Below, one piece after another: positions 16,697 to 62,954 of a stretch of 64,000 nt of DNA. The notes beneath the pieces are model-generated. The model was not told the DNA's origin, searched no databases, and saw only the letters and a list, made by a program, of their open reading frames with translations. Source of the DNA: Lasiosphaeris hirsuta (lineage: Eukaryota > Ascomycota > Sordariomycetes > Sordariales > Lasiosphaeriaceae); contig JAUKUA010000006.1 in NCBI GenBank assembly GCA_030549175.1, positions 682,001-746,000 of the forward strand, written 5' to 3'. The translations under genes and the position numbers were made by a program. Each line of letters opens with the position of its first letter. Within the stretch, counting starts at the first letter, position 1.

Positions 16697-17489
16697 GTCG
16701 CCATAACGGATGTAGCTAAAACGGCAACTCTTGGTACCGTTCTGGAGACGCTACTCCCAGATATATCTTTGCATGAACGGGCTGGAGTCCAACAAATCGG
16801 ATTGTGTGAAAAATGCGCGCCGAGCTGGCACAAGCCCGCCAATGAGGGGCAGCCCCATCATTGCCTTACAACGATGACTAATCAATCTACATTTGTTGAT
16901 TGTTTATGCTACGACGTGGGTCATGTATCCATGTAGGCGCCAACCAAACCCCGGACACTCCTACAAGTCGTTGGCTGCTGTACGTGCTACACGGGTTTTC
17001 CAGCGATAACGCTGCTTACCTCCCATCTAGCACTCGGACGACACAGACGACTCTATACATACAATATTATCTCAAAGCAACCTAATCCATCTGTGTCACC
17101 TGACATTTAGTCATAGGTCGAGCGCCGAGAAGCGCACGGGCCCAAAATCCGTCTCTCATTCCTGGTGTCCCGTGTACCAGCTGCTAGATCGCGAAGTCAA
17201 CCCTACTTATCACAGCATACTTAACACTTACTAACACACGTCGAAAGCTACCACAGTAGACCCAAAACCTTACGGGCTTCGATACGGCAAAAGCTATATT
17301 AGCTTCTGTCCTAAGTATCTCAAAGCGAACGGAAACTATACGAACCCAGCCGACTCTGATAGAGATAGCTGATAAGAACAGTGGCCTATCACGACGTAAA
17401 GATCGAAGATACCTAGTACGAGTAGTATAAGTAGCCTAAGTAAAATCTCGTCTTCTATACGGAGTAGTTAGACGGTCTTAAGGTCGGCT

Positions 17490-17990
17490 ACACGCTACTG
17501 ATTATAACGACTCTGATTTTAACTCTAACTCCGACAGTACCGATAATCATTTCGACTTCGACTACGTCGATACTACTAATAACTTTAAATTGGATGACAT
17601 TAAGCTTTTATGTTGGGACTTCGAAAAAGGTAGTAATATGAGATTTTGTACTCTTAATATAATGATTAAGGTCGAGTTTTAAGGCGAGACTACCTGGTAG
17701 TCCGAATAGTAAGTTAACTCTACTTAGAAAGAATTGCTACTACAATTCTGGGGTAAACGAGGAGGGCGAGAAGTAGCGATCAAGGGGAAGGGTAGGTATT
17801 TAGGTAAGGATTTGACGTATACTGTCAATAGAATTATTAATAAGAAAATCAAAAACGGTTACTAGTTATATGAGGTTAAGTAGGTTGGCTATTTAAGTAG
17901 TGAAAGTATATGGTAAAAAGAAAGCGAAGTAATGACGAACTTTTATATTAGGGCGTTTAAGAGGAGCCGCCTAGAGCTATGATAGAGTAG
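17490..17990 (+). pseudogene. RIP-degraded chromodomain protein
   Basis: After an acidic Asp/Ser/Asn-rich stretch the frame yields two chromodomain-like units. The first holds IKVEF then a W/E-rich segment and GKRGGREVA. The second reads YTVNRIINKK followed by LYEVK, VGYLSSESIW and ESEV, matching the chromodomain pattern YxVEKIL...Y.VKW.GY...E.TWEP. Stops fall at the expected Trp and Gln positions (TAG for TGG or CAG). Many fungal repeats encode such double-chromodomain proteins that bind methylated histone H3. Borders are approximate. Confidence 0.6.
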
Positions 17991-18389
17991 TACGTATTTA
18001 TTATCGGGCTTAGAGTAATGAGGTTCCTATCGTAGTAGTAGAAGGATCTCGTGGTAGAGAACATATCTAGGGGTAGTAGCTAGAGCTTAAGATCGTTATT
18101 CCTAGGTCATGCCAGCTATTAATTAAGAATTAACTACCTTTTTGTAACTTCCCATCTATTATACGTAATTATATCTCGGTACCGTTATTACATATATTAG
18201 ATCCTACCTAACGTCTTAAGTAGTTACTAAGTATTACTATGAAGTACTATCTACTTTTTCTAAGATTACTGATATATAGATCGGAGACAATTTTAGTTCG
18301 ACTCTCGCCGAGTAATATCTTTTCCTCGGCCGTAACTTTTTCTAAGCCCTTGGCTTAGGGTCAGAGTAGCGGCACCTCCTATACCTAGG

Positions 18390-18700
18390 GTTCCTTTCCT
18401 TACCTCATAACTTTCTATAGTATCTCCGGTAACACTTCGTTTACTACCTTCTCATAGTATTGTACCCTCGTTCTCTAGAGGGTACGCCTATGAACTCTTA
18501 TCCTAAGCTCGTTACCGTCTATGGTATAGAAGTACTTACTCGATTCGTAGTCGGCGTTTTATTATCTGGCCCTCTTAGGGTTGTTCCGGGCCTTCGTTCC
18601 GTGTACCCGGATCGCCGTTTTTATTACCTTGTCGAGGGCTACTATGGTAGCCTCGATATCGTAGGGTTCTAGTTCCGGCGAGAGGGGGGATTGTCGCCGC
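18390..18700 (-). pseudogene. Possible LINE (Tad-like) fragment, RIP-degraded
   Basis: One minus-strand frame stays coherent with only a few RIP-type stops: DIEATIVALDKVIKTAIRV, then NNPKRAR followed by two stops, read as Trp, and NADYESSKYFY. This resembles the stretch between endonuclease and reverse transcriptase of fungal Tad-type LINEs, where a pair of Trp follows a basic Pro-rich segment. Neighbouring frames do not show the reverse transcriptase, so only a fragment survives and the assignment is tentative. Confidence 0.3.
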
Positions 18701-18984
18701 TATGTACAGCTCGTATTTCTTTAGCTCGGTCTTACGTTAAATCTTACCGCGAAACTAAGTAACTTCTTTTATATAGTTAGGACTTAGAACGAGTAGATCG
18801 TCCGTTTTTCTCGTTAGTACTTTCTGGCGGTACGTAGGTATTGTAATATAGGATAGTCGAAGTTATGTTATAAGTAGCTATAGCTCTTAAGAGGATAATA
18901 CGGTCAGATTAGTATAGTCACGATCGGGAAATGACCTAAATAAGTGCTAGAAGGGGAATACAAATCGAGAGCCGAAATATATCC

Positions 18985-19017
18985 CGTTTAGGTAGTAGAA
19001 AATCTACTACCTAAGTG
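18985..19017. repeat. Hairpin GGTAGTAG-loop-CTACTACC
   Basis: Arms of about 14 nt around a five-base AAAAT loop, with two mismatches. The same hairpin core occurs at 32129-32177 and, decayed, at 55662-55680, suggesting a shared element end or MITE. Confidence 0.6.
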
Positions 19018-19869
19018 GGTCTATCGATGGAACGGCAGAAAAGACATAGACTATCCTTTCCGTAATCCTTAACTTCCCTTTCCCAAATCTCCTAGCTTCC
19101 TACTTCACCGAGCCTATTAGGAGTTTCTTCCTTTTCGGTATTTAGCAAACTATTTCAATACTACCTATAACGGCTCTGTCGTATCGTTACTAATCTTCCT
19201 TAGAAGCGGTTAAGATAGTAAAAACTATTACGACCTCATTTTCTATATTATCCCTAGGACCAGAGTGGGAATATAGTAGGAGGACAGTAACGAGGGGCCT
19301 TCGTATTCGCTAGGACGTTTACTAGAGGAACTCTTTTAGCTAAGAGAATATAATCGCGGTAATAACACTAGGTGTTAAGATTCATTAATACTCTAAGACC
19401 TTAGCCGAGTAAAAGAAAAGATAGGATAAGTAGACGATAGGTAATAAATAATACTAGTCATGACACGGATAAGTATAAACTTTAAAGATTTAGGGAGATA
19501 TTTCTTCATTCTACATATATATATATACCTAATTTGTCGCGAAAGTATCTATTGAGGTCGAGCCTGACTAAGCCTTAGCTTTACTCTAGAGATAAGTTAA
19601 CTTATATGTCCTCTCTTATATATATCTATACATATATATCTAACAAATATAATACAAAGTATACCTTAAAAGTTAATATGTATGATATAAATAGCCTTTA
19701 AGCGTCCCGTCTATTGTTATATTCGTTACTAGGTCGGGTAACATTTTATAGAGCTTATGGTAAGAGTCCTTAAGGGGTAGTTTAGACTAATACATTAGTA
19801 TGTGGAATATTACTTTTGGCTAAACTTTAGCCTTAGACTTTAGGACTATCTGTAGTAAGTATAGTCGCC

Positions 19870-20360
19870 GGACAGACTAGTTTAGGCTTAACATGACGTA
19901 TTATAGTTTGTAGCCCATGAGATCGATAGTAGGCTAGTAGACTAGTTTAGTAAGAAGGCTAGTAGGTTATAGGTCTACCTGACGAGACAACGGGCCGTAT
20001 ACAAGACTAGTTTAAGTAAAGAACTAGTCTAGATAATAAGAAAAAAGGCTATTACTATAATAGAAGGGTAAGACTAGTCTAGAGATAGGACTAGTTTAAC
20101 AAGTCACACCGTTAAACAATAAGAGAGCCTACCTATCTAAAGACGTACTAGTCTAACATGTAGACTGGTATGGGAAAATACCATTAAAAAATGGTAAACG
20201 CTTAATTACTAGACTAGCCTAGTTAAGGAGCGAGTCTAGACTGTAGTAGCCTGATATCAAGCTAAGTAAATATCTTAGACTAGTTGAAATTCCAAAAGGC
20301 TTACGTTTACCTAGATATTATAGCGACCTAGTCAAAAGCTAGACTCCTAGACTAGCCAGC
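19870..20360. repeat. Cluster of ACTAGT-centred motifs
   Basis: At least eight copies of GACTAGTYTA or close variants lie within 490 bp (for example near 19874, 19939, 20004, 20020, 20071, 20089, 20147 and 20276), irregularly spaced and in both orientations, since the core is palindromic. Reason unknown. Confidence 0.6.
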
Positions 20361-21049
20361 GAAAACATGAATCGTGATGGCCGATTTATATAGGCTGAAG
20401 ATATCTATAACAACAGGTAGGTAAAGAAGTAAGAAATAATACCAGTCTGAGGTAATGACCGACCTATCAGAGAGGTTTAAGTCTAAAAAATACTTAATTT
20501 TAACTTATGGTCTAGCATGATATGTAGTCTAAATATGTACCTTTAACAGATATTATGAGCTGGCATATCCCGATTTATGTTAAGTCTTTATAAACCTTCT
20601 AAAGTGTAGATACGAGTATTGTGCCGATGTCCTTGGTCGTTCCTTATCTATAGCTTCTTCACCAGCCTTATGAGTAATACTGTGTCTAGGCTCTCCTATA
20701 TATTGTTACCCTATGTACTCGTGAGTGATATTAAAGCCTTTACTTACGTGTTAAACGTACCTTATGTCTACTACGGCTTAGTTAAGGAGGTAAGACATCT
20801 TGTTGACCTAGGATAAGCTCTAGTAGTATGACAGTAATATGCCGTAACCTCCGATAGACTAGATATCATAGCATATTGTAATATTAAGTACGATACACTA
20901 AGCCGTAACATAGTTAAAACATTGACTTCATACCGGCAAAAAAGTTTTACCTAGTAGGGACTGAATCTATCGAGTTGTGCTTAGTTACTTAGCCTATTAC
21001 TTAATCTTCAACCCTACTTTATACTATAAACTTATCTACTGGACTAGTA

Positions 21050-22190
21050 GCTCTAATAGTAGTTACACGGTCGTTAGCTACTACTCGCCACGAGTGTACT
21101 TAATCGTACTATAAATAGGATTACTATTACTACCGTATTTAGTAATAACATAGCAGTTCGAGATTCTAATATAGTATCTAAAAACTGAGATGTTAGCGAT
21201 TGTCTAAGGAAAAAGGCCAGATCTAACTCACCCCGGTTCGAGGAATCGGCGTGTAGAGAGGTTAATGTAATTATCTAAAGTATTGATGAACTTGTCTATC
21301 GAAGTATCTAACTCTACATATATCTTTTTACTAAACATGATCCTATATGTCTTCATAAAGGCATGTTCTATGGAAGAGAGTCTATATTATTAACTCGAAT
21401 TCGGAGCTATGACAGACTTAAAAAGTGTCATGATGCTTTCCCGAGCCGAATAGCCACGTAAAGAGACTTGTTATAATAAAAGAGTTGTTATAGGATATTT
21501 GGTCGAGCTAGAATAACGAGATGATAGTATAACCTTCCTGTTGTTAAAGATCTATCCGACGCTTTGCTATACTATCTACGGCTGACAGCTACTTAGACCT
21601 TACGGTCCCGAATGTTTTTATCTTCGATAGCCATATAGTACCGGCCGAGGTCTCCGAGATATTTTATCTAAGTATCTTCGAAAGCGGGTACCGTTTCGTA
21701 TAGCAACGTTATCATCGAGTAGGCCAAATAGATAAAGGTGAGTATATACTCTAAACTGGCTAGTAAACGATACCTTAACAGTTTAAGAAAGCTACCGATA
21801 CCATGTTACCACATCCAATCCGACATTACGTATTTCAAGGCTAACCTTCTTAGTATAGGACTTACTAACAGATGCTAAGACACTAGGAATAAGTCGTAAT
21901 ACTCGTGGAGTAACGTTTGGTAGAGAGTAATAAGTACTTACTATTGTTCGTTGTTAAGTTTCGTGTTTACTAAGCCGGCTTAAGTATTTTGAGCGGTGTC
22001 TACCTCGATACATTTATTTTTGACTATGACGAGGCCAGCGTAGATACCTTTGACCTCAGTGACAAGTTGCTTCTGGGATATAAGTCTTATCTCTGGTTAC
22101 TTAATCAGCTCGGGGTCCTTGTATAACCAGTAGTTAGGGGCATATGGAAGTGTGTCTTTATCCCTAGTTTTGTTTGATGTAGTTGATAGT
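21050..22190 (-). pseudogene. RIP-degraded Est1-type DNA/RNA-binding domain protein
   Basis: The minus strand reads NYWLYKDPELIK, then KQLVTEVKGIYAGLVIV, LLHEYYDLFL, ETVPAFEDT, KYLGDLGRYYMAIED, LTTGRLYYHLVILARPN and further C-terminal helices. This is the pattern of fungal proteins with the Est1-type DNA/RNA-binding (14-3-3-like TPR) domain, which occur as multi-copy genes in repeat-rich regions. The family HxxL segment in the middle is recognisable but stops (TAG/TAA) appear where relatives have Gln or Trp. Not the cellular Est1/Smg6; a repeat-associated paralogue. Function of the intact family is not established. Confidence 0.7.
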
Positions 22191-24167
22191 ATAGTACAGA
22201 CACTAGCCGTACCGCCATTGTCTTCTAGGTCTAGCTAAGATACCAAAGACGTAAATAGCGTTAGAGATAATACTGGTGAAGATAACACTAAAGACGATAA
22301 CGCTAAAGATTGATAATGACTTTATTTTGTACCAGCTTAAATATTAGCTAATTGTAGTTTAACGGGGACAGGAATAAAGTTGTACATATCTAGCGGTTGA
22401 GCCGGCTAAGATTAAGCTTACTGTGCTTGTAGTAGTTCTTTGGCCTTTACTTTAATGTTCGAGGAGCAACTGTGGTATAGATACTAACTACAATGGGTAC
22501 GGTTCCTTAGATATTAGTTCTAAGATATCGTAATGTCAGGAGGAGCCTCCGCTTCGGAACGTATTAGAGTTAGGCCAGACGAAGGTCTCGATGGCTACGC
22601 TACGTCTTGTGTCTTAGCATGCTGTGTATACAGTTGACTGGTAAGTATAGAAAAGACTGTTATTTTTATGGTAAAATCTTGTTAAATATAGCTTCGGATA
22701 GAGAAGCCATTCTTAGGGATCGTCAGTCCCTGGGTAGTGTTAGTCTTCTAACGACTCTTAATCAACAGCTCTATATACTTTCTTAATGAAACAGCCTCGT
22801 GTTAAATGTTCATAGCTAGGATGTCGTTTCGTACTCGGGCTTAGTATAAATCTAGATATCGCTAAGCTTACTAAGTTTTGTAAGTAGGTCTACGGAACCG
22901 TTCTTGGTATGGTCTACCATCGTGAGATTTAGACTGTTAAGTTTTGGTAGGCTACTTACCTTAAATAGTAAATGGAACAGTAGCCCTAGGAATTTTATTT
23001 TCTATGTAAGTAAGCTAGGTAAACCACAAGCCGTAGCTCCGGTAAGGTAACTGAGGTATCATTCTAACTTGTCTTTGCCTAAATGACATAGCTAGCTCTT
23101 TACATTTAAGGATTCTTAGTATGGTACCATCTAGGCTTATGTTATAAGTAGTTATTCTATCGGCATACGCTTACTTCGGCTTAGAGTGTAAATTCCAGTT
23201 GAAACTCTTTTATAGAAGGTTATGTATTTGTAAATTTAAGTTGATGATAAATATGAGAGGATTTTTTTCCTTCACCTACGTTCTCGGGGGCTTTATGCTC
23301 CTTAACGATTACTATGAATATCTCTTCTTCTCTCTATTATCCCAAGATACCCGGCTTCTTTGATTTAGGTAATGAGCCAGGGCTAGTAGCGGCCCTATAG
23401 CCGAAACCACGCGAAATCGGCCTCGAAACGAGCTACTGTTTCTCAGCTCCATTGCCTAAGTACCCGCCAACACTTAAACTTAAGTAAGGTTTAGCTGACG
23501 GAGAGGTTAGACGATTAGTCAGCGTCGGTTGTATATGTCGGAAGTGCCTAGGGTGTGTAAAACTGGTAGTTAGGTGAGATTGCCTATAACGATATTCTTC
23601 GGTCGAGTACCTTTTGGAGTAACTTAGTAGTAAGCTCCTCGTTATTAGTAAGCGTGAGTTAGTTTATCTACCTACTGATAAGCCTAGCCTACCTCCTCTC
23701 GCTAGTAAAGAATGTGACGGCGAGTTGGCTGTGTATTTCGGTGGCTCCTACCGCCTATTACGGCGGCCTATTGGCTAAAAATTTAGCGTCGCCTTATGCT
23801 AAGCTACCTTATTACCCCGTACGGTTAGTGTCTAAGCTACGTGTATTCGGGTAAGTTAGGTACCTTATATGTACCGTAGGTACCGAGCCTTTATACTCTG
23901 TGAACCGTCTCTAAATATCGAGGGTCTAAAACTCCTTAGATTTTTATTTTCTACTTACTACCTTCTTAGATGCTGGAGGGCTATTAAAAATGGCTCCTAA
24001 CCTAATGTTTAAGAGGCTGCGTCTGCGCCTCTTTAGTGATGTATTTCCTTCGTTGTCAAAAGGATTGCGAGTTAATCGCCTACTAGCCTATCTTATGTTG
24101 ACGACCGATATTATCTCTTACCTCTTATGCTTAACTTATCGCCTTTATTAGTTATTATCGTAGGAAC

Positions 24168-26676
24168 ATGGTGTGTTATTGCCGTAGACTAGACGACGAT
24201 TATTCGGACGGTTCGAACTTAGACTTTCTAGACAACATGTCCTTGTCGGATGAGGATAAGGGGTTCGATGTTAAGGTCGACGATAGCGGCTATGAGACTA
24301 GCTCGATAGATATTAACGACGAAGAAAGTAACGATGTTGGTGACTTTGGCGACGATTGTGACGACTTTGATATAGAAGATTAAGTATAGCTCTTCGACGG
24401 AAATTTATATCCTCGAGAGTATTACCTTAAGTAACTAAAAGAGTTTAATAAAGCCACGTTCGATGATAAAGATTATAGTGAGGGGAGTACTATACTTCTT
24501 GATAGAATAGAAGAGCTGTGGAATAAGTAGGTGGTATGAACGGTCGTACTTCGACTACTTGATTTGTGTTAACAACTGTAACGAGATATTACGCGTAGTT
24601 TGAGTACGACCAGTAGGAATCCTTCGAGTCTGTCTTTCTTAGGTTCTTCTATAATTTCTTCGACTGGCTGCTGGGCCAAAAGGCCGGTAAAAACGGTAGG
24701 AAGAAGTGTAGAACGAAGAAGAGTAGCTTACTCGGGACGTATTGGAAAGTATACCGGCTCGTCTATGAGAGGGCTACCGGCACGAAGCTCGATATGAAGT
24801 TGAACCGAAAAATGTATAGGATAGGACCTTCTCTAACCCATGACCGAGGTACCGGGCTAGGCTAACGTTGTATAGGTGCTTAAAAAGCTCGCTAAAAAGT
24901 ATGGGTTAAGCGACCAGAGGCGTGAGAACAGGTGTATGTAAGTAATAAGTTGAGATAATACTAGGTATGATGAAGAAGTCCTTCTCTCTAGGAGAACTCC
25001 GAGTTCTTTACGTCCTGTTTCTCTTACTACTCGCTCCTACCAACACTTACCCTGCCTCGGTACTTAAACTCTGTTACCGAGATATCCGAGTCATATTGTC
25101 TCGAGACTTAGACGGTAGTCCGTATAAAGTCCTAATTAGGTTCACGTTGGAGTTTACTAAGACTTATCTCGGTACTAAAGATACGTATGTGCCTAGGCCT
25201 AGTCGGGATGTCCGGGGTGGCTGGCGCTTTGTAGTTCTACGTGTACTGACGCTATGTTAGGAAGACTATAACCCTCCCTAAAATCTTATTCGACGACTCG
25301 CTTATACTCAGCTTCTACGTCTTCCTCGAAAGTATCTTCTTTAAGTACCGAGCCTTCGAGGTACCGAGTCTGACCTACCTTGATGTAGTCAGTAGGCTTA
25401 ATATCTACCTAGGTAAGTAGGAGTTACCTTTACTACTTAAACTAAGCATAGATAATGTTTATATCTTCCGTCGAGTTGTTAAGACGTTAGTCGGATATGA
25501 GATGTTTCTAACCGAGCCTATCAGTCTTATAACGATCGTTAAATAGGTTAGGAGAGTTAGCGAGCTCACGGGGTTCGAGGTCTTGATAATCCTATATAAC
25601 TTACGATATAATATTACCAATGTGTTTGATAGAAGTAGTACGTTTTCTAATTATAAAAAGATATCCTTACTAATAACTATATAAGTAATGTAAGTGACGT
25701 AACTAGAAATCTTATGTTAGATCACGTAAACTCGAATCCGTTCTAAAGGTACTATCTAGGGTATTAACTTACGGTCGACTCGTATGTACTTATCCGCGGG
25801 TTAGAACTATAGAATGCCCTAGTGTAAAAGTCCTATAGTATTGGCTATTCCATTAGTAAATGACGCCTTATAAATCTGACGATAAATCAGGTAGTATTAG
25901 TTAATTTCTATCCTAGTATTAAGAAGCTAGCTTATAAGGTTAAGGTGTTACGCTAACAGGTAAAAACCTCACATAAAGCTATGTAGAAATATAAAAAGGC
26001 ATATGATAAGCTCCGGAGCGCTAAGTAGACGTAAAAAAGGGCCTTTAAGGATAAGATCAGAGAATAGTAGACTAATAAATAGGTAATGATCGATATTGAG
26101 AACTAGCTTACGAGCCTTAGCTTCGTTAAGGAACCGGCTATCCGGAAGTCTAACTATTTAAGACGACTAGTCTAGAAACGGCTAATAAACGTACTTACGG
26201 CTTTGGTCGAAAGTATAGTCGAGGGCCAATACCAGCGAAGAGATGTTGCCATCTATGCCGTAATAACTTATTACGTCGTGGTAAAAGGGCTGGCTATATA
26301 GCGTACTAATACTTCCGGGGTAGAGACGGTACGGCGTTCTTTCGTTAAGGATAAGCCTCGAGAAGACGGTTATTACGTAGAAGACGATCGTCGTATAGTT
26401 ATGTTATTTATCTTCATAGTAAGTAAGGAGGAGAGGCTGAGAAGATACTTCCTTTATGTAGGCCTAGTACTTTACTTAGAACCGGATGACCCTTACATCG
26501 AAGAACTTACGTACAAATTTTATAGTACCGGCGACTTAAGTAAGTACTTCCGATGGAAATACTTGAAAAACATCTAAGAGGGGAACGATATAAAGTACGG
26601 AGCTTATTACATGTTACTAGACCATAAGATACATCTCTAGCGTCATGTCCTTTAGATCTACGGCATAGTATCTTAA
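24168..26676 (+). pseudogene. RIP-degraded DUF3435 protein (Starship captain-type tyrosine recombinase)
   Basis: Nearly full-length relic of about 830 codons. In order: acidic N-terminus from ATG 24168; NLYPREYYLK and YSEGSTILLDRIEELW; FFDWLLGQKAGKNGRKK and LGTYWKVYRLVYERATGTK; the catalytic core from 24967 with SFSLGELRVLYVLFLLLL, LKLCYRDIRVILSRDLDG and LIRFTLEFTKTYLGTKD; NLMLDHVNSNPF, RYYLGY and SYSIGYSISK; a charged C-terminal segment (KAYDKLRSAK); and finally FYSTGDLSKYFRWKYL with a C2H2-like LLDHKIHL. All match the DUF3435 family, which includes the YR captains that move Starships. Stops sit at Gln/Arg/Trp positions and several frame breaks are present, so it is dead. A short CA-poor leader precedes the ATG. 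Confidence 0.85.
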
Positions 26677-26739
26677 CATTATCTGTTTACCAAGAGTAAC
26701 TTACACTGTTAAGTAAACTCTATCTTTCTTAGTACTTAT

Positions 26740-27430
26740 ATAGATCGTTATGAATAGACAGGTTCTATTTGCCCGTAGGCTACTAACGTTACCGTACTCT
26801 ATACCTACTCGAGATACCGGCTTTGTTAAAAGTAGGAAGAGAGTGGTTAAGGTATAGATGCTTAGATTTCTAGAGTATATAAACCACCTCTTATTAGACT
26901 TAGGACTTTTGGTTAAAAAATGGCGTTTTTTCCCTCGGTTATCGTCGTCTTTTTTACTCGTCGGTTCTTTTTGATCTGGAAAGGAGGCCTCTCTTCTACA
27001 GTAGTATGTACTATGTCGTTAAACGTGCCAGTTTAATAAGAATATATCGTTTCATCCTTAGTTTATGTGATGCTGAAAAGTTGGTTTGAGACTATATCTA
27101 AAATATCGACTACCTTGAAGAGAAGGTTAGCCTCTTTCGAGGGTGACGGTTATGACAACTTACTTCTATCTATCTTAACGCCTAGAATTACTACTCCCTG
27201 TTATAACGGACTAGTCTAGTACGTGTTTCATTAATAATTTCTAAATCCCTGATCATTAAGAAATAACTACTATTTACTCCGGGTACATTGTTAGGCCCTA
27301 TTTACCCTTTTACTGGCTATCTAACGTTACCATTGTTAGCTATCTGATATCGGCTTTGTCAAGGAGTGGGAAGAGAGTAGTTAAGGTATAGATGCTTAGA
27401 CTCTAGAGTATATAAACTTTCCTTTACTCC
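26740..27430 (+). repeat. Direct repeats upstream of the sirtuin relic: promoter-like unit twice, partial gene copy
   Basis: A unit with CGGCTTTGT, GGAAGAGAGT, GTTAAGGTATAGATGCTTAG and a TATA-like AGTATATAAA occurs at about 26750-26885 and again at about 27290-27425. After the first unit, 26885-27150 repeats the N-terminal part of the sirtuin relic found at 27717-27980 (including YRFILSLCDAEKLV and NIDYLEEKV). So a promoter plus 5' gene half was duplicated before RIP. Confidence 0.6.
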
Positions 27431-27639
27431 TCTTACCTTTTCCTTTTCTTCTTTCTTCAATATTTTCTCTCTTAGGAGTCTTACGAACTAACAGTCTGAC
27501 TAGTAACATCTCATACTTCTCCCACGCCCTAAGAGTTACTATGTTAGCCGTTACCTTGGTGTAAAATAGCTATTATCCATGTACAACCGGATAACGGTGT
27601 TTATTTACAAAGTATTATAAGCCTATTTAGTATCGTATT

Positions 27640-32400: not shown

Positions 32401-32413
32401 CCCCCCCCCCCCC
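32393..32413. repeat. C-rich run at right border of RIP block 1
   Basis: Six C, a T and fourteen C mark the sharp change from CpA-depleted to normal composition. Confidence 0.85.
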
Positions 32414-51605: not shown

Positions 51606-52039
51606 ATACCTTCCTTCTTATCCTTCAGTAAGCTAAGAGTCGAGATCAAGTGACGGTAGCTTTCGTGTAGAAGGACTTTATGGAGATGTTTTTCGGTTTA
51701 TGTTTATATATGATTGATGGACTAGAAATACTAGCTGATTAGCCTCATCGACCTCTAACCTTTCTTTAACTAGGTTTACCTTTTTTTAGTAAATTCCTTA
51801 ACTAGATACTACCTTCTTCATATACTAAGTAGATTTTTAGGCTAAATTTATATATTTATGGCGGGCCTCTATCTAGCTAAGAATCGGAGTAGGTGTAACA
51901 GGCTTGGTAAGACTCCTAAATGGCGGAGGCCTTAGACCTTTTATATAGTAAAACGCCAGTACTTAATACGGCGGTGGTGGATACACGAGGACTAATGCTC
52001 GCCGAGGTACTTGACAGGGGTAATCATAATAAACGTTAC

Positions 52040-53640
52040 AAACCGTGAGGGTAGGAGAGTAAGCCACGTAGTAAATCTCCCACCTCCCGAGGCCTTATCT
52101 CTAGAAGCTACCGAGAACGGAGTAAGATAGCGTAGTGGTCTTTAATCTCTCCTCCTAGCCCGATTGCCGTAACGTTAGAAGAAGCGTTGAGGCCGTATGA
52201 GAGACTGGTCAGCCAACTATAAATAAACTCCCTACCTCGACCTACTAAAGATTATAATTACGAAAGCCGTGAGGTATCTAAGAGAGGAGGTAGGTCACAT
52301 AGTAGATCTACTTTCTTACGAAGTCTTAATCGTTACCGTTAAGAACAAGCTAGAGGAGGGTCACCACGGTCTATAATAACCCCCTTAGTCCCTCGAGTCC
52401 CTAGCCCTCCAGTTTCTAGTCCTCTAGCTTCTAGTCCTCTTATAAGAGCGGTAATGGTATCACTAGTATAGAACGTTATATAACCTCTTAAGAAACTATA
52501 GACCCAGACTATAACCGAAGGCCTAGTCAGTAAGTAACAGGAAGAGCTAATCCTTAATACGGTACTATAAACAAATTCTCAGACAGCGGAAAACCTATCT
52601 TAGTATAAAGGTAGAAATAGTAACAACCGTTATAAGATATTAAGAAGGGTAAATGGGTTACGGAGCAGATCTCCTTCTTCGCGAGACCTTAACTACCGAT
52701 CTCGCCGGGAACGGACTAGAAAAGAGTCGCCACGATTTATAATACTCTCCCCTAGGGCCAAAGTGGTTATAAAATCCCAGCCTAACCTAGAAAATACGCT
52801 ACAACCCCCAGAGATCCCAGCTCTTTACGGGGCTCTGATCGGTCAGTTATAAAGGCCTATATCTGACTAGCCTACATAATAATCACTAATAACAAATATA
52901 CTCTCAGATAGGGATATAACCCGTAGAATTATTTACCGACAACGGGTTACGGGATCTTCCCGCCGGTTCAATCTCCTACTAGGCCGAAAAGCATTAGTAA
53001 AGTAGTCTCCAGTTCAGCCTCTTAGTCCTACTCCAACCCCTAGCCCTCCCGGTATTAAACAGTATCCTACATATATACCGTAACCCCAACAGGTACTAGA
53101 AAATCTTAATATATTTACTTCCGGAAGTCTAGGAATCCCCCCTAAGAGCCTATATCCGTCTAAACACTAAACCCCATACAATAAGCTCAGACAGGAAATA
53201 TATACTATACGGTAAACCATAGTATACAAAAGGCCATGGAGTACTCAGACTAACCTAACTTAGAACAGTCTAAAGAAGGCCCATAACCTTTAATCTAACT
53301 ACCTATTAAAGTTAAATCAGCTTTAGAAAAGTTAATGGGACAACCTATAATCAGTCAGACATAAAATCTACAAGTGCCTTAACCTCCGACGTAAACTATT
53401 AGTTAAGAATCGAGACTTGATCAAGTACGGGATATAAGAGGGTCTATACTAAACATTTTACCTTAAGATAAGGAGAGTGTCTGAAATATCCTTTATAAGT
53501 AATTTAAAAGAGGCCGTTTACGTAAACCACGTAGTAAATCACCTACCTCTTAAAGTCCTATATCTCGAAATCGTCGAGAACGGCGGTTTCTAATCTAGTC
53601 TCTAATTACTTCCGAAGCCGAACGGCCTAAGGTATTGTCG
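52040..53640 (+). repeat. Degenerate array of a repeated, possibly coding unit
   Basis: At least four copies of a segment of roughly 100-150 bp (about 52045, 52270, 52640 and 53510), each with AGTARATCTMC, a CTTA block, GARAACGGA or its variants and GTCKYCACGR...TTTATAAT. In one frame the copies encode Arg/Ser/Pro-rich peptide (RSPSSRD, SRRERTRKESPRFIILSP). A former protein with internal repeats, or a diverged satellite. Confidence 0.5.
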
Positions 53641-54244
53641 TCGAGACAACCTTTAGTCTATTCCCTATATACTACAAAAACATACCAAATATAAAACATA
53701 AGCTTATTAATAAATGAACATCTTACCAATAAGACGTAAGAGCCAGTATTTAAACATACCACACCGTAACAGATGACGGAAGTAGAAATATTAAAACGAT
53801 CTTCAATTCGACTTCTTAATTTCCCTAGCCCCCCTAGAGAAACAGCTGAAAAATAGCCGTCAAGACGTCCACAAGCCTCCCATGTCGCCAAGATAGTAAA
53901 GACAAGTACTTATCTAGACGAGCTCCCAGTTCAACCCTAAGTTCTAGACGGCCCCGCGTAGCAAATGATTCAAAATCCGTCTCAAGATAAGAGTACTAAT
54001 CGCCGACTACTATTCCAGTCCTTAATCCTTTTTCTAAACTCTATATTACCTCGGCCAAAGAGAAAGGTAATAGTAGAGTAAAGTAATATTATTAAATGGT
54101 CGAGGTAATCCCTAGTTCTACCTCCCTACTATGGCCAGCCCTAGGTACCTCAGCCACTACTACAAACAACGGAATCCTAGAATAGTAGTAACCGTACTCT
54201 AATAGAGCCTATTATCTTAGCTCGTTTACTAGGTACAGAGCCTT

Positions 54245-54410
54245 CCAACGAGATTTAAATACCTAGACGTGGTGAAAGGTCTTACCTACTTAGCTGAGAG
54301 TCTACTAACGAGGTTTAAACACCTAGGCACAGTGAGAGGCTCTGTCTACGTAACGATATATAAATACCAAGGCGTAGCGAGAGGCTCCGTTTACTCAGTA
54401 AGCTACGTAC
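54245..54410 (+). repeat. In-frame minisatellite, three units of about 45 bp
   Basis: Units start ACGAGATTTAAATACCTAG, ACGAGGTTTAAACACCTAG and ACGATATATAAATACCAAG. The open frame 54269-54487 translates them as TRFKYLDVVKGLTYL, TRFKHLGTVRGSVYV and TIYKYQGVARGSVYS. Copy number and phase keep the frame open, unusual inside a RIP block. Confidence 0.6.
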
Positions 54411-55439
54411 GCTTAGTCAGAACCTATCAGGGCTATCGTAAGATCATAACGAGTTACGACATAGGAAGAAAGTTGACTAGTGGGTAAAAGTAGGGTCGTT
54501 ATCTAAGCGATCTCTAGTCCTATCCTCTCTCTAACTTGCCTCTTCCCTAAAGAAGTAAACGGAGAATGGTAAGAGGAGGGCGGTCTAGACTAACTAACTA
54601 AAAGTCCTTAAAAAACAAAACAGAAGTGATCTGAGAGCTTCGTTATCTAAGACATACCTTCCCTTCTAATTTATTTTAAGTAGTCTATCAGTTATACCTA
54701 ATAAACATACTTATAAATAGATAAATTACTTTACCTAACTAGTTATTAGTAAACGGAAAGATACATACCTAGGCAATTACCCCGAAGTTCTTATTAATTA
54801 CGAGATACTTCGGCCTTATATACATAAAGGGCCTGAAGTAGTAAGCTCCCTTTTAGACGGAAGAGCTAAGACTCCGGCTTAACCTCTTGTTTTACCCTTA
54901 GAATTAGTCTCTATTACTTCCCGAATCGAGCTAACCCTAAGGGCCTTCGGGAATAAAACTACCTTTCTTAGATATCTTTTTAGTCGTGGTTAGCTAGTCT
55001 TACGTAAAGAAGGCTATTAAGAGGATAGAAAGGGTAAAGAAAAAGAAATTTAAGTAAATATAAACTAGCCGACATACTTGACCAAATCACCCGATCTTCT
55101 ATAAGATATAGTAGATATCTCTTTGATATAAGTACTCAAGTCCTTAAGTCATAAAGTACCTTCTAAGGTACGATCCTCGGTAACATATCGAGGAGACAAA
55201 GGGTAGCTAAGATACTTTATACATCCTCTTGGGACTTCTGAGTTTAGTACTTCCGATATATCTTTTAGAGTTAGCCTTCCTACGACTTATCCTGGTATAT
55301 CTTCTTCTAGAGGTAGCCTTCCTATGACTTATACTAGTATGTCTTCGTCTAAGAGGAGCCTTAATACACGGCTAAGGTAATCTCCTATCTACCCTCTAGG
55401 CCCTTCTATTAATCTGTCTAAAAAAGAGAATTCTAAGAA

Positions 55440-55810
55440 CGCGTAGAAACCCCTCCATAGAAATTTAGGAGAAACGGGTGAACTTGAGACTTTTTTAGAA
55501 ACTAGGTTAGGGAAGCTTCGAAGTTATGATACGGAAGAAGAAGAAGAAGAAGAAGAAGAAGAAGAAGAAGAAGAAGAAGAGGAAGAGCTTTAGTTTTTTA
55601 GTCGATACAATTAAATGAGAAGTATATATTTTACTAAACTTTTAGGCCAATGGGAGCGTGCGGTAGAAATTTTTACTACCTAAGTGATTTGTCGATTGCT
55701 TAACTTCTGTGATTATTCTCTGTTAAGAGATATGAGTTGGAGATATTTTAGGCTTCCTAGTAATAAATCTCAATATTAAGTTACGTTACTGGCCGGATCT
55801 TATTATGGAG
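55440..55810 (+). repeat. Inverted repeat copy 2 (partner 32030-32400)
   Basis: Plus strand carries the same ordered blocks that the minus strand has at 32030-32400: AGAAACGGGTGAACTTGAGA, ACTAGGTTAGGGAAGC, ATGATACGGAAGAAG, CAATGGGAGCGT, a decayed hairpin and TTTTAGGCTTCCTA. More RIP-type transitions than copy 1. Confidence 0.75.
55540..55580 (+). repeat. GAA microsatellite
   Basis: About thirteen consecutive GAA/AAG triplets inside inverted-repeat copy 2; copy 1 has only three at the matching place, so the run expanded after the copies split. Confidence 0.9.
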
Positions 55811-57567
55811 TCGGTTCTCGTGGAGGCGGAAGTCTACGATGTAATACCCTCATCTAAATTAGTTACTAACTACCTTGGCTACTAGGTTTCTAGTATGGAG
55901 TAGAAACCTCTTCTTTTAGTTAATGTTTTAGTCGTATTCTAGTAAAGAGTTATAATTTCAAGGCTTTACTAGGTAGACTATATAACTACGTGTGTTAAGT
56001 TTTTTAGAGAGGATAAATATATTTCGTAAATATCGTAAAAGTGTTAGTAGGAGATAGTGAATTAGTTTAGGGGTAAGTAAATAGTAAGTATAAACCGGGT
56101 ACTTAGGTAATACTCTGTATGAAGGGATAGTAGGACCCGTATTAAGAACGCCTCTTACCGTAGCTAGATCCGGTCTCCGATCTGCCGACGTAGTACTTGG
56201 TAGCTTGCTAATATGTTACGTACGTACTTTATCTGAGATATTAACCCTTGGCCGGAAGTAGTTAATTTATTAAGTGACTTCTTTAGTATTATTAGATGTT
56301 AGTCGGTTAGGCTTGGGGTTTGGGCTTGTATCTTGTAGGTTTGGCTACGGTGGTATCAAGGTGTCTTACTATACTATACAAAAGCTCTTAGCTCCGCTTA
56401 CTTACGAAATCTTAGGCCGAGGTTAAAAGACTTATATAATTAAGAAACTTACTCATAGAATTTTCTTAAAATCTGTATTGACTTCGTCTACTAGATCTCA
56501 ATGGCTAACCAGACTTTTAAGACCCTTCTCCTAGCCGGCCTAAGTGTTTGATACGTTGTCTAGGCAGGACGTTAAACCGTCGTTTCCCGATAGTACTTAC
56601 CTCCCCTCTGTCTTATTACGGATAAGCCGCGGAACTTTAGGACGTTTGTGAACGTAAAAGTACTATACTTCCTATTACGATCTATTATCTTTGATTAAGT
56701 CTACTATTATAAAAAAATACGAGCCCTATGTCTACAATATGCCGAAAAGGAAGTATCTACAAACAGCGTGGAGAGGGTCGGCCACAGCTAACGACCAGCA
56801 AGAGGATTTGGTAGACGGAGGGTACGCGGGGGCGAATTGCCGCGTGTAAAATGGTTGCGCCTTACCTTTGTGAGTTATCGTGTATGGGTATGTAGCCCTC
56901 CTATAGGAACTAGGGGTTCGCCGAGGTTGTGAATGTAAAAGAAAGTACGATTATCCACTTCCTTACGCCGTTATTATTGATTGAGTATATATTGCGAAAG
57001 ATATGAATACTACGTCTATTTGGTATAGCTTCTTAATCGGTATTTGGGGGGAGGGGGAGTAGCTAGAAACCTAGCTAGCGTGTGTGTTGTAGGTAGTAAC
57101 TGGTATATCCGTCTTGAATAACTTATGTATTTTACCGTCTCCGGTCTTGTATAAACAAATTTCTAGTCTCCTTTGGACGTTGGTTATTTTATCAGTTAGT
57201 ACAGAAGGTCTAGGTACCGATAGGGCCTGTAGGCTAAGAAGGTAGGCGTTTACTGTCTGACTTGCTAAAGATAAAACGATACTTGACGAGATTTGGTATA
57301 TTACTTATGTAACGTTTCCTCCCTCCTTCCTATCTTCTATTCGGCTACTAAGGACTGACCACGTTGTTGCTATGATTTAACAGTTAAGAGACTCTCTTAG
57401 TCCGTGTGCTATATATACAACTATACCGCACCGCTTACGTTGTCGGAGCTACGAAGTCCCAGCCCGAGTGGACTGGTGTGTTAACTCTAGAAGGATACGC
57501 TAGGTTACCTACAGTACCGCTAGTTGGAGTTTTCTCCCATCTCTTTTTAAGGCCCAGTTCTCTCCCT

Positions 57568-57630
57568 TAATACTAAGTTTTAGTCCCGAAGAGATCTACA
57601 AAGCTCTGCCATCCTCGACACTCGAGTTCG
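57568..57630 (+). repeat. Dispersed repeat segment shared with 44412-44470
   Basis: CCCGAAGAG, then a diverged stretch and GCCATCCTCGACACT occur at both places in the same order and spacing. The copy here shows more C-to-T/G-to-A change. Parent element not identified. Confidence 0.55.
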
Positions 57631-57916
57631 GCTAGTCGCCTAATCTATGCTACCTTAGCGGCTATCTTCGCTTTTCGTATTATGTTACGGCTGGTACTGG
57701 CGAACTTTATAAGATCCTCGAAGAAGAGCTGTACGTAGCTATCGTAGTATATACTAGGTAACGGGTAGGTGTTAGACGGATTTGTACTGTCTGTATTTTG
57801 GCTTAACGTAAGTTTCTATTAATATCCTATCTCCGTTTTATATCCCGTACGGTTCTCGTTCAGATTTCGTATACCTTGGGAATTACAATGGCTGTCCGAG
57901 TGGGAGGTGTAATTAA

Positions 57917-57939
57917 GTAGGGTTAGGGTTTATAGGGTT
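57917..57939 (+). repeat. Telomere-like repeat inside RIP block 2
   Basis: TAGGGTTAGGG and a further TAGGG follow closely. A third example of the motif seen at 16683 and 62675. Confidence 0.5.
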
Positions 57940-59959
57940 TGTTTACTTTCCTCTGTTTCTTACATTACTAACGGCTACAACCCGAGGCTAGGTACCAGTG
58001 CCACCCCCGCCTCCGGCGGGGAGAGGGTAGCTTTAGAAAATATTATTATCATTTTGTATCAACGCTTTTTAGTAAGATTTTAGATTGAGCTATGCCAGAA
58101 TAGCCTAAGCTTCCTAACTATCCAGTCCATCTATATTGTCTAATTCTATCTTCCTATACACTTTCTATCCTAATATGCAAGCCTACTGCCTACGTAATGA
58201 CATCCCAATTCCTAACTTCTAAGTCTCGGTATATGAGGTAAGGTTGAAGGTTTATATTGCTACCTAACTGATGCGTTTTCTCGCATAATTAAAGGGATGA
58301 CTGAAGCTGTTGGCGTTGTTGAAACGGCTCGTATATGGAGGGAAGGGGGAGCTTTAGCCCCTAACGAAATATATCGCCACATAAACGCTTAACAAAAATG
58401 CCGACGATAAGGCCTTTGTTCCAAAGTGAATGGGAGCTTGTACGATGTCTTTATGTATACCGTGTAAGACTAACGTAAACGAAGTAGTCTCCTTAAATGC
58501 CGTTTATTAATGTTTGCTACGTAACTAAGTGTAGTCACTGACCCTCCGAAAACTATTAAAGACGACGGAGAGACTAGTAACATCAAGGGGCGTACCTCAC
58601 GGGAAGAGCTCGAATGACTGCCATGCCCTAGGCTTACTATCTATGTCCCTTTCCTACTTATATAATTATTTTTGGACGGGACGTAGGCCGTTCTTTAGTT
58701 TATTTTTGTACATTTTAGGAAGGAGAAACAGGCTAAGGAGGTAACTGGATATACGAAGCTAGATGTCACGTTCCTTGATTCCGGATCTTAGGTACTGGCG
58801 GGCGGCTAGCGGTGTGACTCGGTGTAGCTAGGCTAGTGTACCGAAAAGCTCGGCTATCGATATTAGATGTTATACTTTGTTTACGTCCGGCTCGACATTA
58901 TTCCGACAGTCCGTAACTATGTATAGTATTATATTAGAGACCTTAGTATAGTTGGTATCATAAAAAGAAAGATAATCTGTATTTAAGCTATAATGAAAGG
59001 TAAGCTAGCTAATAACTATGTTCGACATATCTTATTTAAGTGACTTTAATAGTAGTATCGGAATAAACATAGCTGTTAAGCTGGGTACATGGCCGTAGTT
59101 AACTACTAGGTACCTACGAAACGAAGCTAACGTGGTTAGCGGTCGCCCTCTTACGCGTTGCCGCTTCTATTAGCCCTTAGAACATAGTTACTAAAGTCTA
59201 ATCTTTGTTATTATCCTAAGCGTCTAAGAAATAGCTACTATTATTATCTATGTTCCATTTACTATTATCATCGTTATCATCTATGTTACCTAAGGCTATC
59301 CTACCGTCCTTACTAATGGTTATGTCTACTTTTGTATCGTTAACCTTATGAAGAAGCTTAGGCTTCTTTACCTTTTCTAAGTCTAATGTCTCCTCGGCCT
59401 TATGTTTGTTTTTATTTATTGTTATACGGTTAGTTAATAATCTGCTTTATATGATTTATGTTCGTAGTTTTCGTATTTACCTTAGGCTATCGCCGTCGTT
59501 TTATCCTAGTAGATTAATCCGGTTTAGTAATCTACCTATTAACTCCAAAGTCTTAATATTGTCTAGACCGGTATCACTGACTGTGTCGACAAGTATATTA
59601 TTATTATTAAGGTCGGTACCGTACCTAGCGTTAAGCTTACGTTTATTGTACTCGTAGTATTTACTAGTTACTGTTACTAAAGGATATAATAAGGTCTTCG
59701 TTATGTAAGACTCGAGTATATACGCTTTATATATATCTAACCTATTTACTTCTTGTCCGTAGTCACGGTACCGAAAAGGTTTCTGAAACTCCTTTTTATA
59801 CGTACGAACAAGATGCCGATAAACGTTTTAGAAAACTTTATTATAGAGCTAGTAACGTTGGAATAGACGGTACGAAACCGGCTAGTAGGCCTATAAATGC
59901 TTAAGCTACTTATTTAGTTTTATGTTTAGTAAATGTTTACATTTCTTATATGAAATCTA

Positions 59960-62072
59960 CTTACTCGGCTTTGTGTACTTGTAGTTTATATAGCTGGTAA
60001 ATATGTCGAGTGAAATGCTCGAGCTATAGAAACAAGGGATGGATTTAATAATAAGTTTTAGGGTGAAGTTTAGGCCGTGGAATGTCGCGTAATAGATAGA
60101 CTATGTATTCGAGCCGGCGGCTACTTCGATATGCTTCTTATGTACGGCATAAGCGAGGTACTTATGTAGTCGTAGAAAATCGTCCTCGTACATCATCTCG
60201 ATATGCCTCGTGAGACTAGGAAAGGTGGAAAATGACGCCTTATATAGGAGGTATTGAAAATCAGCTGCCTTTACTATGTCAGGTCCCGCTTTACGTAGGT
60301 TATCTAAAAGAAGTTTTATCTATCGTATATTAACTACCCGGACCGGCATGTCGGTAGCTTAGGTACGGCAGTTCTTCCTAGATGATAGTTTCAGTAGAAA
60401 TTGGAATATGGTAGCTCCGTTGTAGGTTAGGGAAAGAGTAGTCCTTTCTTTAAGGGCTTTAGACCGAATGACGTCCATTAGTAAGTCACGAGCCTTATGC
60501 TCGTCGATCTAGTTAAAAAACTAGGCCCTTTTGAGGTTAAGCTGAAGGGCTGATAGTATTTTGATCCGAACCTTATATCGATTCCGTAGTAGAGTCCTCT
60601 CACGTCCGGTAGCCTTTTTGATTTCTAAGTGAAATGTGGTAATGTCGTTACGAAGTTTAAATTAAGAAAGTTCATACGGTATCAAGTTAATTGGGGCGTC
60701 TTTATCGCCTGTGAAAAAGAAGTCTTCCCACATAGCTAGGAAAGGCCGGTCTTGTCCCGCCTCCTTTGTTAGAAGCTTTATAAGGTTAGCCGAGAGAGAT
60801 ACTTAGTAGTTATTTTTAAATATGTCGATTGAGTTGGAGAATATATAGTAATATAGGACGTTCCTAAGGGTACCTAGGTAGAAGTGGAGAAAGGTAGTTA
60901 GAAAGGACGTTATTTGAGAAACTGCTCGGTAGGCCACGTACCTATTGTTCTACCTTCTACTTTAACTCGTATGTAGTAAAAGCGGGGAGAGTCTCTAGTG
61001 CCGCTTATGATACACGTACGTTTCTACACCTAGTGTAAAGTAGTGTCAGAAATGTTAATAATATACTTGTCTAACATAGATTTCTTTCATTTTAGCGGGA
61101 TATATTTAGCTTCTTCTCAAAGGGACTAACTATAAAGATCTTTAAGTAACTTAAAGTCGGCGGTAAAGGTATTTAGTCTAATTCCGAGATTTATAATAAG
61201 GCCCGGTAGGTTAAAAAGTGGGTTAGGATTAGTTATAACTATGAAGGTAATCTACGGAAACATTTTTAAGTTATACTTCTGACGTTGCTTGAATTTGATC
61301 CTCTTTATATGAACCTCGTAAGCCAGCTTGGTTCTGCCGTCGGAAAGAGTGATAAACCTAAGTTAAAACTAAGAGAATTTCATCGTCCGTAAGGACTTCG
61401 GCCGGAAGCCGCCGAGCGCGGACAGTAGCTAGATAACGTGGACGTGTAGCCTCGTGAGCGGAGTATAAGAGATATAGGCCGCCTTTACCTACAGATCGTG
61501 GAGAACAGTTCTGACAGCCGAAGGTGTCGTTACGACCTTTTGGTAAGGAGAGTCGAGGAGTAGGTCCTCCTCCAACGCCAGGTCCTCATAGATCCACTGA
61601 CCTCCGTAGGCTAGTCAGTATCGAGCACGCGTCCGTAACAATATGGGAAAAAGGTATGACTAACTAGGACAACCTTGAATCTAGGCCCTATAAGGCAGCT
61701 CTCTACGTCATAGAGCTACTGGAGTCTCTAGAAACGGGCTTTCTTAGGCTGAGCCCGCCTCTTAGTCTCCATGACATGGAAATCGGCGGCGGCAACGAGC
61801 GCCCTCTAGATATTAACGACGGTCGAAGCATGTGTGACTGTTCGCACTTTTACGCACTCCCGCGCGTCGAGAACGGTACGTATCTGTAGCGCGTTCCGTA
61901 CGTAGCTTCTAAGGAATACTTTGATCGCGTGGAGTCCCCCATCACGGCCAAGAAGAAACTCTTCCCAGGCGTGAGCCGAGTCTATCTTGGACAAACGACA
62001 GAAGCTATGGAGCCGGCTTAGCGATGAGAATTTACTTATGAAAGGCTTACTTACCCTTCCCAGAGCTTCCAT
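59960..62072 (-). pseudogene. RIP-degraded DUF3435 protein, FluG-like subtype (candidate captain at element edge)
   Basis: Minus-strand relic of about 700 codons starting near 62072. N-terminal: WEEFLLGRDGGLHAIKVFL, RTVTHASTVVNI-stop-RALVAAAD. Then the region before the core: WIYEDLALEEDLLL and LTRLHVHVI-stop-LLSALGGFRP (the LLSAxGGFRPGxL Arg-box of the family), KFKQRQKYN, NPLFNLPGLIINLGIRL, FKLLKDLYS, SIDIFKNNY, LIKLLTKEAGQDRPF, DAPINLIPYELS, LRNDITTFHLEIKKATG and RERTLLRNRYKV. These follow fungal proteins named FluG-domain/DUF3435, a tyrosine recombinase group distinct from the relic at 24.2 kb. Stops coincide with Gln, Trp and Arg. Being the first gene inside the right border and pointing inward fits a Starship captain. 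Confidence 0.75.
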
Positions 62073-62954
62073 ACCCGGTGCCTTGTAAAGCTTGTGGACT
62101 TGTCGACAAGAGGGCCGTTCTGTTTATCTGGCCGGCTCTTAACGTCCTCGAAAAGCAGCTGGAAATCCCGCTCTTACCCAGTAGGCTGAGCGGACATTTA
62201 GTCAAGCCAGCCACATTGAGGAAGACGGCCGGCCATCACGTTGACCTCGTTGGGAAGTACTGGTAGTACCATGAAGGGCGATTGGGCCTGGTGTTAAAAC
62301 TTCAAATGACCGGCGAAGGTACACAGGAGGGATGAGGGCAGAGTTGAAGAGATAACAAAAATAAGAATCCCGGGGGGGGGGGGAGAGGGTGGGGAGAAGG
62401 GTGGGTTAAGAGCACCGTGAACACCACAGGATGCCTTACTCCTGGAGCCCCGGCTCCCCTCTCCCTTTCATCCATCGCCCACGGTAGGGGGGTCAAAAAG
62501 GAGGAATTTGGCCATACTGTGCGTTGAGTTGGTCGGGAAGGGTGGGTGGGGGGGGGGAAGGGGGCACCGAGAAGACCGGTGCTCCTCCGTCTCCTCAAGT
62601 AACGGTATCCGAGAAAGGCGGCGGCCACATCGGCTCCGTTTTCAAGATCTCCCGGCCCGGTGCACGTGACATGCAGGGTTAGGGTTGATAGACCCCTAAA
62701 AAACTCGGCCGCCCCACATAACCCCACTTTTAGCCCCACTTATGTAGAAACAGGACCATGACTTTTCCAGTAGGTATGGTCGTATGTGCTTGCTTGAGCG
62801 GATGTTTTGGGTTATGGAGAGGTGGGATGGCTGAACGAAGGAATAAAAGAAGGGCTCGAATGTGCGCCTCGTTCCGAAGTTGGCAAAACAAAAGAGCAGA
62901 GGGCAATGTGCAGCCCCCTAGTAGAACAGGGGGACAGCAACGCAAAAGTATGAG
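62073..62954. other. Right border of RIP block 2 and intergenic DNA
   Basis: Composition returns to normal within about 62080-62350. Two G-runs lie at 62372-62383 and 62548-62557 with further G-triplets around (potential G-quadruplex), and a telomere-like AGGGTTAGGGTT at 62675-62686. No gene recognised; 62078-62266 is open but without a domain. Confidence 0.5.

What the first reader, a model, noticed from the sequence alone, without database searches (positions are those of the whole stretch)
16700..62300. Fossil Starship-type giant transposon(s) between house-keeping genes
Two RIP blocks hold relics of DUF3435 (two subtypes), DUF3723, HET/STAND-type, sirtuin, FunK1, Est1-type and chromodomain genes, with an island of intact genes (HET, kinase, BCS1-like ATPase) between. 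DUF3435 plus DUF3723 plus HET/NLR is the known gene signature of Starships; here all mobile-type genes are dead. The 45 kb could be one element split by RIP, or two nested ones.
Basis: partly seen in the sequence, partly recalled or inferred. Interest (0 to 1): 0.85.

Follow-up and report, generated by a model that had tools for sequence, protein, structure and literature searches.

The report
Derelict Starship graveyard in fungal chromosome
A stretch of a fungal chromosome holds dead, heavily mutated remains of what look like at least two giant 'Starship'-type jumping elements around an island of intact genes; dead Starships are already known, but here the exact front end of one can be placed, with two intact-looking relatives elsewhere in the same genome.

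Summary
Two strongly RIPped blocks without long ORFs (about 17.0-32.4 and 46.9-62.0 kb) surround an un-RIPped island. DUF3435, DUF3723, HET-NACHT STAND, SIR2, FunK1 and Est1 relics are real; the second DUF3435 is weak and the chromodomain unsupported. The host is Lasiosphaeris hirsuta (Sordariales). Element B is Starship-type: its 5' tip is exactly window 23706, and the same tip lies 5' of DUF3435 genes with open exons twice on the 957-kb contig C13. Captain, SIR2 and FunK1 are colinear with C13; 81% of mismatches are RIP-type, and identity without them is about 97%. So B does not span 16.7-62.3 kb: it starts inside block 1, abutting an older Est1-like sequence cut at that base. An oppositely oriented DUF3435 relic at 61.0-61.5 kb suggests a second element. 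The island has its own history: 3.6 kb of it, with the start of HET, is 99-100% identical to C13, where HET is truncated and a young LTR retrotransposon has inserted. No 3' end, target duplication or relative's empty site was found. Best reading: a derelict, nested or adjacent Starship cluster, new member of a known kind.

The parts
16433..16553 (-). 5S rRNA gene at the left flank, a divergent copy (72.8 bits)
   Evidence: 39th by score of the 47 matches listed
17040..32400 (.). RIP block 1 (left limit approximate)
   Evidence: dinucleotide indices; the edge at about 32.4 kb is sharp
21078..23705 (-). relic of an Est1-like (PF10373) region, older sequence, cut off exactly at 23705; homologous to C13:201509-203784
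   Evidence: its continuation (C13:203785 onwards) was found only on C13
23706..23725 (+). 5' tip of element B
   Evidence: same tip at C13:189011 (the pattern itself) and C13:218842 (2 mismatches); the window copy has 1 mismatch
24168..26673 (+). captain-like DUF3435 (PF11917) relic of element B, 25 in-frame stops in the five exon stretches read
26885..28714 (+). SIR2 (PF02146) relic, partly duplicated in tandem
   Evidence: homology to C13:192137-193472 and 217206-218347
29190..31286 (-). FunK1 (PF17667) kinase relic (left limit approximate)
   Evidence: homology to C13:193965-195880 and C7:4993914-4995973
32038..32386 (+). 349-bp repeat at the RIP/island edge, inverted relative to 55426-55784
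32400..46900 (.). island without strong RIP, with intact genes (right limit approximate)
33858..35099 (-). BCS1-like AAA ATPase gene (open frame)
38271..40104 (-). protein kinase gene (two overlapping open frames)
41348..43117 (-). HET-domain gene, complete in the window, truncated on C13
42694..46297 (+). segment 99-100% identical to C13:207965-210752 and 216231-217034; the C13 copy carries an LTR retrotransposon that the window lacks
46900..62000 (.). RIP block 2 (edges gradual)
48028..49835 (+). relic related to a HET-NACHT-WD40 (STAND/NLR) gene
   Evidence: homology to C10:318421-323135 and to a gene at C13:226-230 kb
50708..51457 (+). DUF3723 (PF12520) relic with 9 stops inside
55426..55784 (-). 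inverted partner of 32038-32386
61033..61470 (-). second DUF3435 relic (putative captain of an oppositely oriented element C), below the Pfam cut-off
   Evidence: not hit by any of 112 DUF3435 proteins found with the C13 captain
62954..63026 (-). tRNA-Met, right flank

Best explanation
The locus is a graveyard of at least two Starship-type elements in the Lasiosphaeris hirsuta genome. Shown: element B begins at window 23706 and carries, in order, a captain-like DUF3435 gene, SIR2 and FunK1; its 5' tip and captain occur twice more on contig C13 with open exon frames; B abuts a truncated Est1-like sequence that runs on past that point on C13; B and its surroundings carry strong RIP damage. Inferred: B integrated rightwards into an older Est1-bearing element by the captain recombinase. 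A second element C, with its DUF3435 at 61.0-61.5 kb, entered in the opposite direction. Repeats were later mutated by RIP during sexual cycles, while sequence unique at that time (the island with HET, kinase and BCS1-like genes) was spared. Later, part of the island was copied to C13 (HET is whole here and truncated there), an LTR retrotransposon then entered the C13 copy, and captains of the same family now sit on C13 with open frames, probably arriving after the RIP.
For: Three copies share a sharp 5' tip with unlike flanks outside. The pattern search (up to 3 mismatches) found 5 sites: the window and two on C13 with 0-2 mismatches, all 5' of DUF3435 on the same strand, and two others with 3 mismatches; the reversed-pattern control found 1. 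Window 23706-26891 and 27351-31116 are colinear with C13:189011-192210 and 192137-195880. Of 1262 mismatches in these two pieces 1028 are C>T/G>A towards the window, 515 of them at CpA; identity without them is 0.968 and 0.965. The captain relic has 25 stops and has lost the first arginine box and zinc-finger residues. The Est1-like match ends exactly at the tip. DUF3723 and STAND relics lie in block 2. Second DUF3435 on the minus strand near the right edge. The LTR insertion and the truncated HET on C13 give the order of the later events.
Against: No 3' end and no target-site duplication was found for B or C, and the missing half of the interrupted Est1-like sequence was not found in the window's RIP blocks or on C11 at the sensitivity used, so a plain nested insertion needs an extra deletion. 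The second DUF3435 is under Pfam's cut-off. Which sequence between 31.3 and 61 kb belongs to which element is unknown. [quoted passage not shown] The AlphaFold model of a homologous DUF3435 protein was too poor to test the recombinase fold.
Confidence: 0.7

Rival explanations
1. One single 45-kb Starship spans 16.7-62.3 kb; RIP hit its repeated backbone and spared the unique cargo island.
For: RIP-spared cargo inside a derelict Starship is described (PMC11623301, passages). The island lies between two RIP blocks. The nearest HET homologues in Immersiella and Echria lie on contigs of other lengths than their HECT genes.
Against: The captain's 5' tip is at 23706, about 6.7 kb inside the block, next to a truncated sequence. 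A second, weaker DUF3435 relic, not hit by proteins of B's family, points the opposite way at the far end.
Confidence: 0.1
2. Ordinary RIPped repeat-rich accessory region: solo DUF3435, FunK1, HET and STAND gene families accumulated with other repeats and no giant element ever moved here.
For: FunK1 and STAND relics have dispersed relatives (C7, C9, C2, C10), and the genome-wide DUF3435 search listed no match in those stretches, though it scores only the best candidates. No 3' end or TSD. Solo DUF3435 genes are common (PMC12134995).
Against: The shared tip, captain, SIR2 and FunK1 order with an abrupt common left end in the window and C13 copy 1, and the tip plus captain in copy 2.
Confidence: 0.17
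3. The Est1-like piece and element B are one element in permuted order: a circularised Starship re-opened at another point.
For: On C13 the Est1-like region lies downstream of each captain, and in the window the same piece directly precedes the tip. Identities without RIP-type changes are close (Est1 pieces 0.927 and 0.953; B 0.968 and 0.965).
Against: On both C13 copies homologous sequence continues about 600 bp past the junction point, so the junction is not a shared 3' end.
Confidence: 0.03

Closest known systems
Derelict, RIP-mutated Starships (the P. variotii / Spiromastigoides element of PMC11623301; Gaeumannomyces GtA elements of PMC11905480)
   Same: DUF3435 captain at the 5' side, heavy RIP, and in PMC11623301 a cargo region left un-RIPped (passages read)
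   Different: Here the relic's own 3' end and target duplication are unknown, two DUF3435 relics of different subtype face each other, and relatives with open frames persist on another contig of the same genome
Starship cargo families (DUF3723, NLR/STAND)
   Same: DUF3723 is called a characteristic feature of Starships (PMC11623301, passage); a NACHT-WD40 NLR is reported in a Starship (PMC12134995, passage)
   Different: SIR2, FunK1 and Est1 as linked genes: my one search for these words with Starship and captain found 0 papers holding at least 3 of the 5 terms; this does not prove they are undescribed
Nested Starship insertion (Gaeumannomyces, PMC11905480, passage)
   Same: One element inside another; [quoted passage not shown]
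   Different: Here the far side of the interrupted sequence is missing

Membership tests
Starship superfamily | DUF3435 (PF11917) gene as first gene near the 5' end, facing inward | tested here: met
   Relic 24168-26673 (+) starts about 0.5 kb inside the tip at 23706; similar layout at C13:189011 and C13:218842
Starship superfamily | captain has the tyrosine recombinase fold and catalytic residues | tested here: inconclusive
   The C13 genes keep R (GAR), LRYN, H and Y boxes that I assign from memory of the family; the relic lost the first R; the AlphaFold model of a homologue had mean pLDDT 51 and was not used
Starship superfamily | discrete, sharp element ends | tested here: inconclusive
   5' end shared by three copies; 3' end not found
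Starship superfamily | flanking direct repeats / target-site duplication | tested here: inconclusive
   Needs the 3' end; none identified
Starship superfamily | presence/absence (empty site) among strains or relatives | not testable with these tools
   No relative genome is held for this assembly
Starship superfamily | cargo including DUF3723, NLR (typical, not required) | tested here: inconclusive
   Both are present in block 2, but their membership in B or C is inferred, not shown
Starship superfamily | size of at least about 15 kb (lower bound cited in PMC12134995) | tested here: inconclusive
   B is traced for 7.4 kb by homology (23706-31116); the rest is unassigned

The most novel reading that the evidence does not exclude
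The C11 locus and the C13 captain cluster are two ends of an ongoing exchange. Starship-linked events copied an intact, HET-bearing island segment from this derelict locus to the C13 cluster recently (8 differences in 3592 aligned bp), while fresh captains of the same family re-entered the genome from other Sordariales after the first copy had been killed by RIP. This would be a dead Starship locus acting as a cargo reservoir for live ones.
Probability: 0.15. Interest if true: 0.7.

Novelty: new member of a known kind. Interest (0 to 1): 0.45.

Why it matters
It gives one genome in which a dead and two intact-looking copies of the same Starship-type family can be compared base by base, with a defined 5' end, so RIP damage, age and re-invasion can be separated. 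One C13 captain is far closer to a Cercophora scortea gene (92-98% in its first two exon stretches) than the HECT gene of the same two species is (70%), which points to horizontal movement. The copying of a HET-bearing segment between the derelict locus and the C13 cluster would bear on how Starships gain cargo.

Tried and rejected
Single 45-kb element: rejected because the 5' tip is internal and the two DUF3435 relics oppose each other. 5S rDNA as target site: the left 5S copy is full-length and the right flank holds only a 57-bp 5S-like fragment that is repeated elsewhere; nothing ties either to an element end. The C8 locus with a 5S-like sequence and the right-edge sequence 2.3 kb apart looked like an empty site, but the shared 462-bp right-edge piece is itself RIPped on C8 and ends at window 62123, so I dropped it. 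The 349-bp inverted pair 32038-32386 / 55426-55784 as common 3' ends of B and C: the genome search listed only this pair, left open. RIP-tolerant search of the window's RIP blocks with 23 one-kb pieces of C13:195881-218880 (both strands, reversed-query control) for the missing half of the Est1 target: none. AlphaFold of a DUF3435 homologue: too poor, no fold search made. tblastn of the open frames of 60 aa or more from two other DUF3435 loci (C11:1.84 Mb, C2:0.35 Mb) against the window: one weak hit, outside the blocks. Literature: Starship+captain+DUF3435+5S rRNA, 0 papers; Starship+tyrosine recombinase+Sordariales+RIP, 0 papers. The chromodomain is below cut-off.
Full report
Where it is. The window is contig C11:682001-746000 of a 44.4-Mb, 14-contig assembly. 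The left-flank HECT gene (Pfam HECT) is 100% identical over 96% of the query to Lasiosphaeris hirsuta B0H67DRAFT_311243, on a contig of 4,599,326 bases, the length of C11. Lasiosphaeris is in Lasiosphaeriaceae, Sordariales. Left flank: a poly(A)-binding-protein-like gene (RRMs and MLLE), HECT, a weakly scoring tRNA and a 5S gene. Right flank: tRNA-Met. I did not verify tRNA-Cys or GH125.

The observation. RIP indices flag 31 of 64 one-kb windows, all in 17-32 and 46-62 kb. No ORF of 120 aa or more lies inside 16751-32456 or 46390-62301. At 200-base resolution the island edge at 32.4 kb is sharp and the other edges are gradual. The second DUF3435 is weak (22.8 bits, cut-off 25.8, E 5e-5). Six-frame Pfam scans covered 16900-21799, 46500-56499 and 57300-62199, not every base of the blocks.

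Element B. The DUF3435 relic has relatives with open exons on C13, a 957-kb contig. BLAST shows window 23706-26891 and 27351-31116 matching C13:189011-192210 and 192137-195880 at 80.6 and 80.5%. The C13 open frames there are DUF3435, SIR2 and FunK1. Homology begins abruptly at the same base in three places: window 23706, C13:189011 and C13:218842, the last 5' of the second C13 DUF3435. A genome-wide pattern search with up to 3 mismatches found five sites; these three have 1, 0 and 2 mismatches and the other two have 3; the reversed-pattern control found 1. Flanks outside the tip look unlike in the three copies. That is what a mobile element with its captain near the 5' end looks like.

It is dead. 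Over 6898 aligned bases in the two pieces there are 1262 mismatches; 1028 (81%) are C>T or G>A towards the window, 515 of these at CpA, and without them identity is 0.968 and 0.965. The five exon stretches of the DUF3435 relic hold 25 stops. On C13 only one of the seven one-kb windows from 189 to 196 kb is flagged as RIP, so that copy was probably not in the same nucleus when B was mutated; that is inference.

What B sits in. Window 21078-23705 matches C13:201509-203784, where a frame carries an Est1 domain. The match stops exactly at B's tip. On C13 the sequence runs on and is shared by two C13 loci to about 204385 and 244490. That continuation was found nowhere on C11, nor in the window's RIP blocks with RIP-tolerant scoring. 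So B abuts a truncated older sequence. I read this as insertion followed by loss of the far side, but the loss is not shown.

Block 2. At 48.0-49.8 kb is a relic of a gene whose C10 relative reads HET, NPHP3_N/NACHT and WD40; another relative lies at C13:226-230 kb, downstream of the second C13 captain. DUF3723 is at 50.7-51.5 kb. The second DUF3435 relic is at 61033-61470, minus strand, and none of the 112 DUF3435 proteins found with the C13 captain hits it at E 1e-3. An element C running leftwards from near 62 kb is plausible. Its ends are unknown.

The island. BCS1-like, kinase and HET genes are open. Window 42694-45481 is 99.96% identical to C13:207965-210752 and 45494-46297 is 99.1% identical to C13:216231-217034; there are 1 and 7 differences. 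Between the two C13 pieces sits an element with two identical 164-base terminal repeats, and the junction letters show GTATC on both sides where the window has one GTATC (the duplication is read by eye). So the window keeps the empty site. The HET gene is complete in the window, while the C13 copy holds only its first 424 bases, which suggests copying from C11 to C13. The two copy junctions are not element tips. The nearest HET relatives in Immersiella and Echria (59% identity) lie on contigs of other lengths than their HECT genes, a mild hint that HET and HECT were not linked ancestrally; the HET family is large, so orthology is uncertain.

Horizontal movement of relatives. The C13 captain at 189-192 kb is 97.5, 91.8, 93.4 and 87.0% identical to a Cercophora scortea protein in four exon stretches. 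The last stretch reads 68.8% over 330 columns (69%), because that predicted protein lacks pieces; over shared residues of the alignment it is 96%. HECT of the same species is 70% identical. The other C13 captain is 89 and 91% identical to a Triangularia verruculosa protein in two stretches, a species of another family of the order; its HECT was not among the 120 rows listed. One yardstick gene is thin; many single-copy genes would be needed for proof.

Comparison with what is known. I read passages, not whole papers. PMC12134995: the captain is a leading 5' DUF3435 gene; DUF3435 genes are more usually solo; insertion into other TEs, AT-rich regions or 5S rDNA is reported. PMC11905480: RIPped and nested Starships in Gaeumannomyces. 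PMC11623301: derelict RIPped Starships, with an un-RIPped cargo cluster. So this locus is of a known kind. Membership is met for the DUF3435 gene at the 5' end; fold, 3' end, direct repeats, cargo assignment and size are inconclusive; an empty site is not testable here.

Verdict.

Noticed in passing
C13:210751-216226 (L011/L012): Young LTR retrotransposon with two identical 164-base LTRs inside the segment shared with the window; related LTR pieces occur on C7, C9 and elsewhere on C13.
   Followed up: partly
C13:175001-189000 (L018/L009): AT-rich (down to 25% GC per kb), RIP-positive block directly left of the captain copy at C13:189011.
   Followed up: no
window 62123-62584: 462-bp sequence shared (71%) with C8:3426090-3426561, where it is RIPped; about 2.3 kb from a sequence on C8 that is 80% like the window's 5S region.
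   Followed up: partly
window 62732-62788: 57-bp fragment of which about 40 bases match the start of 5S rRNA; about a dozen partial copies at 80-98% elsewhere in the genome.
   Followed up: partly
window 26882-27135 and 27716-27978: Tandem duplication inside the SIR2 relic (80-81% identity), also RIPped.
   Followed up: no
C13:226636-227451 (L013): About six 126-base WD40 repeat units, 87-92% alike, in a STAND gene downstream of the second C13 captain; such arrays are typical of fast-evolving fungal NLR sensors (recalled).
   Followed up: no
window 57518-57625: Short stretch 86% identical to island sequence 44419-44469, with relatives on C12 and C13; nature unknown.
   Followed up: no
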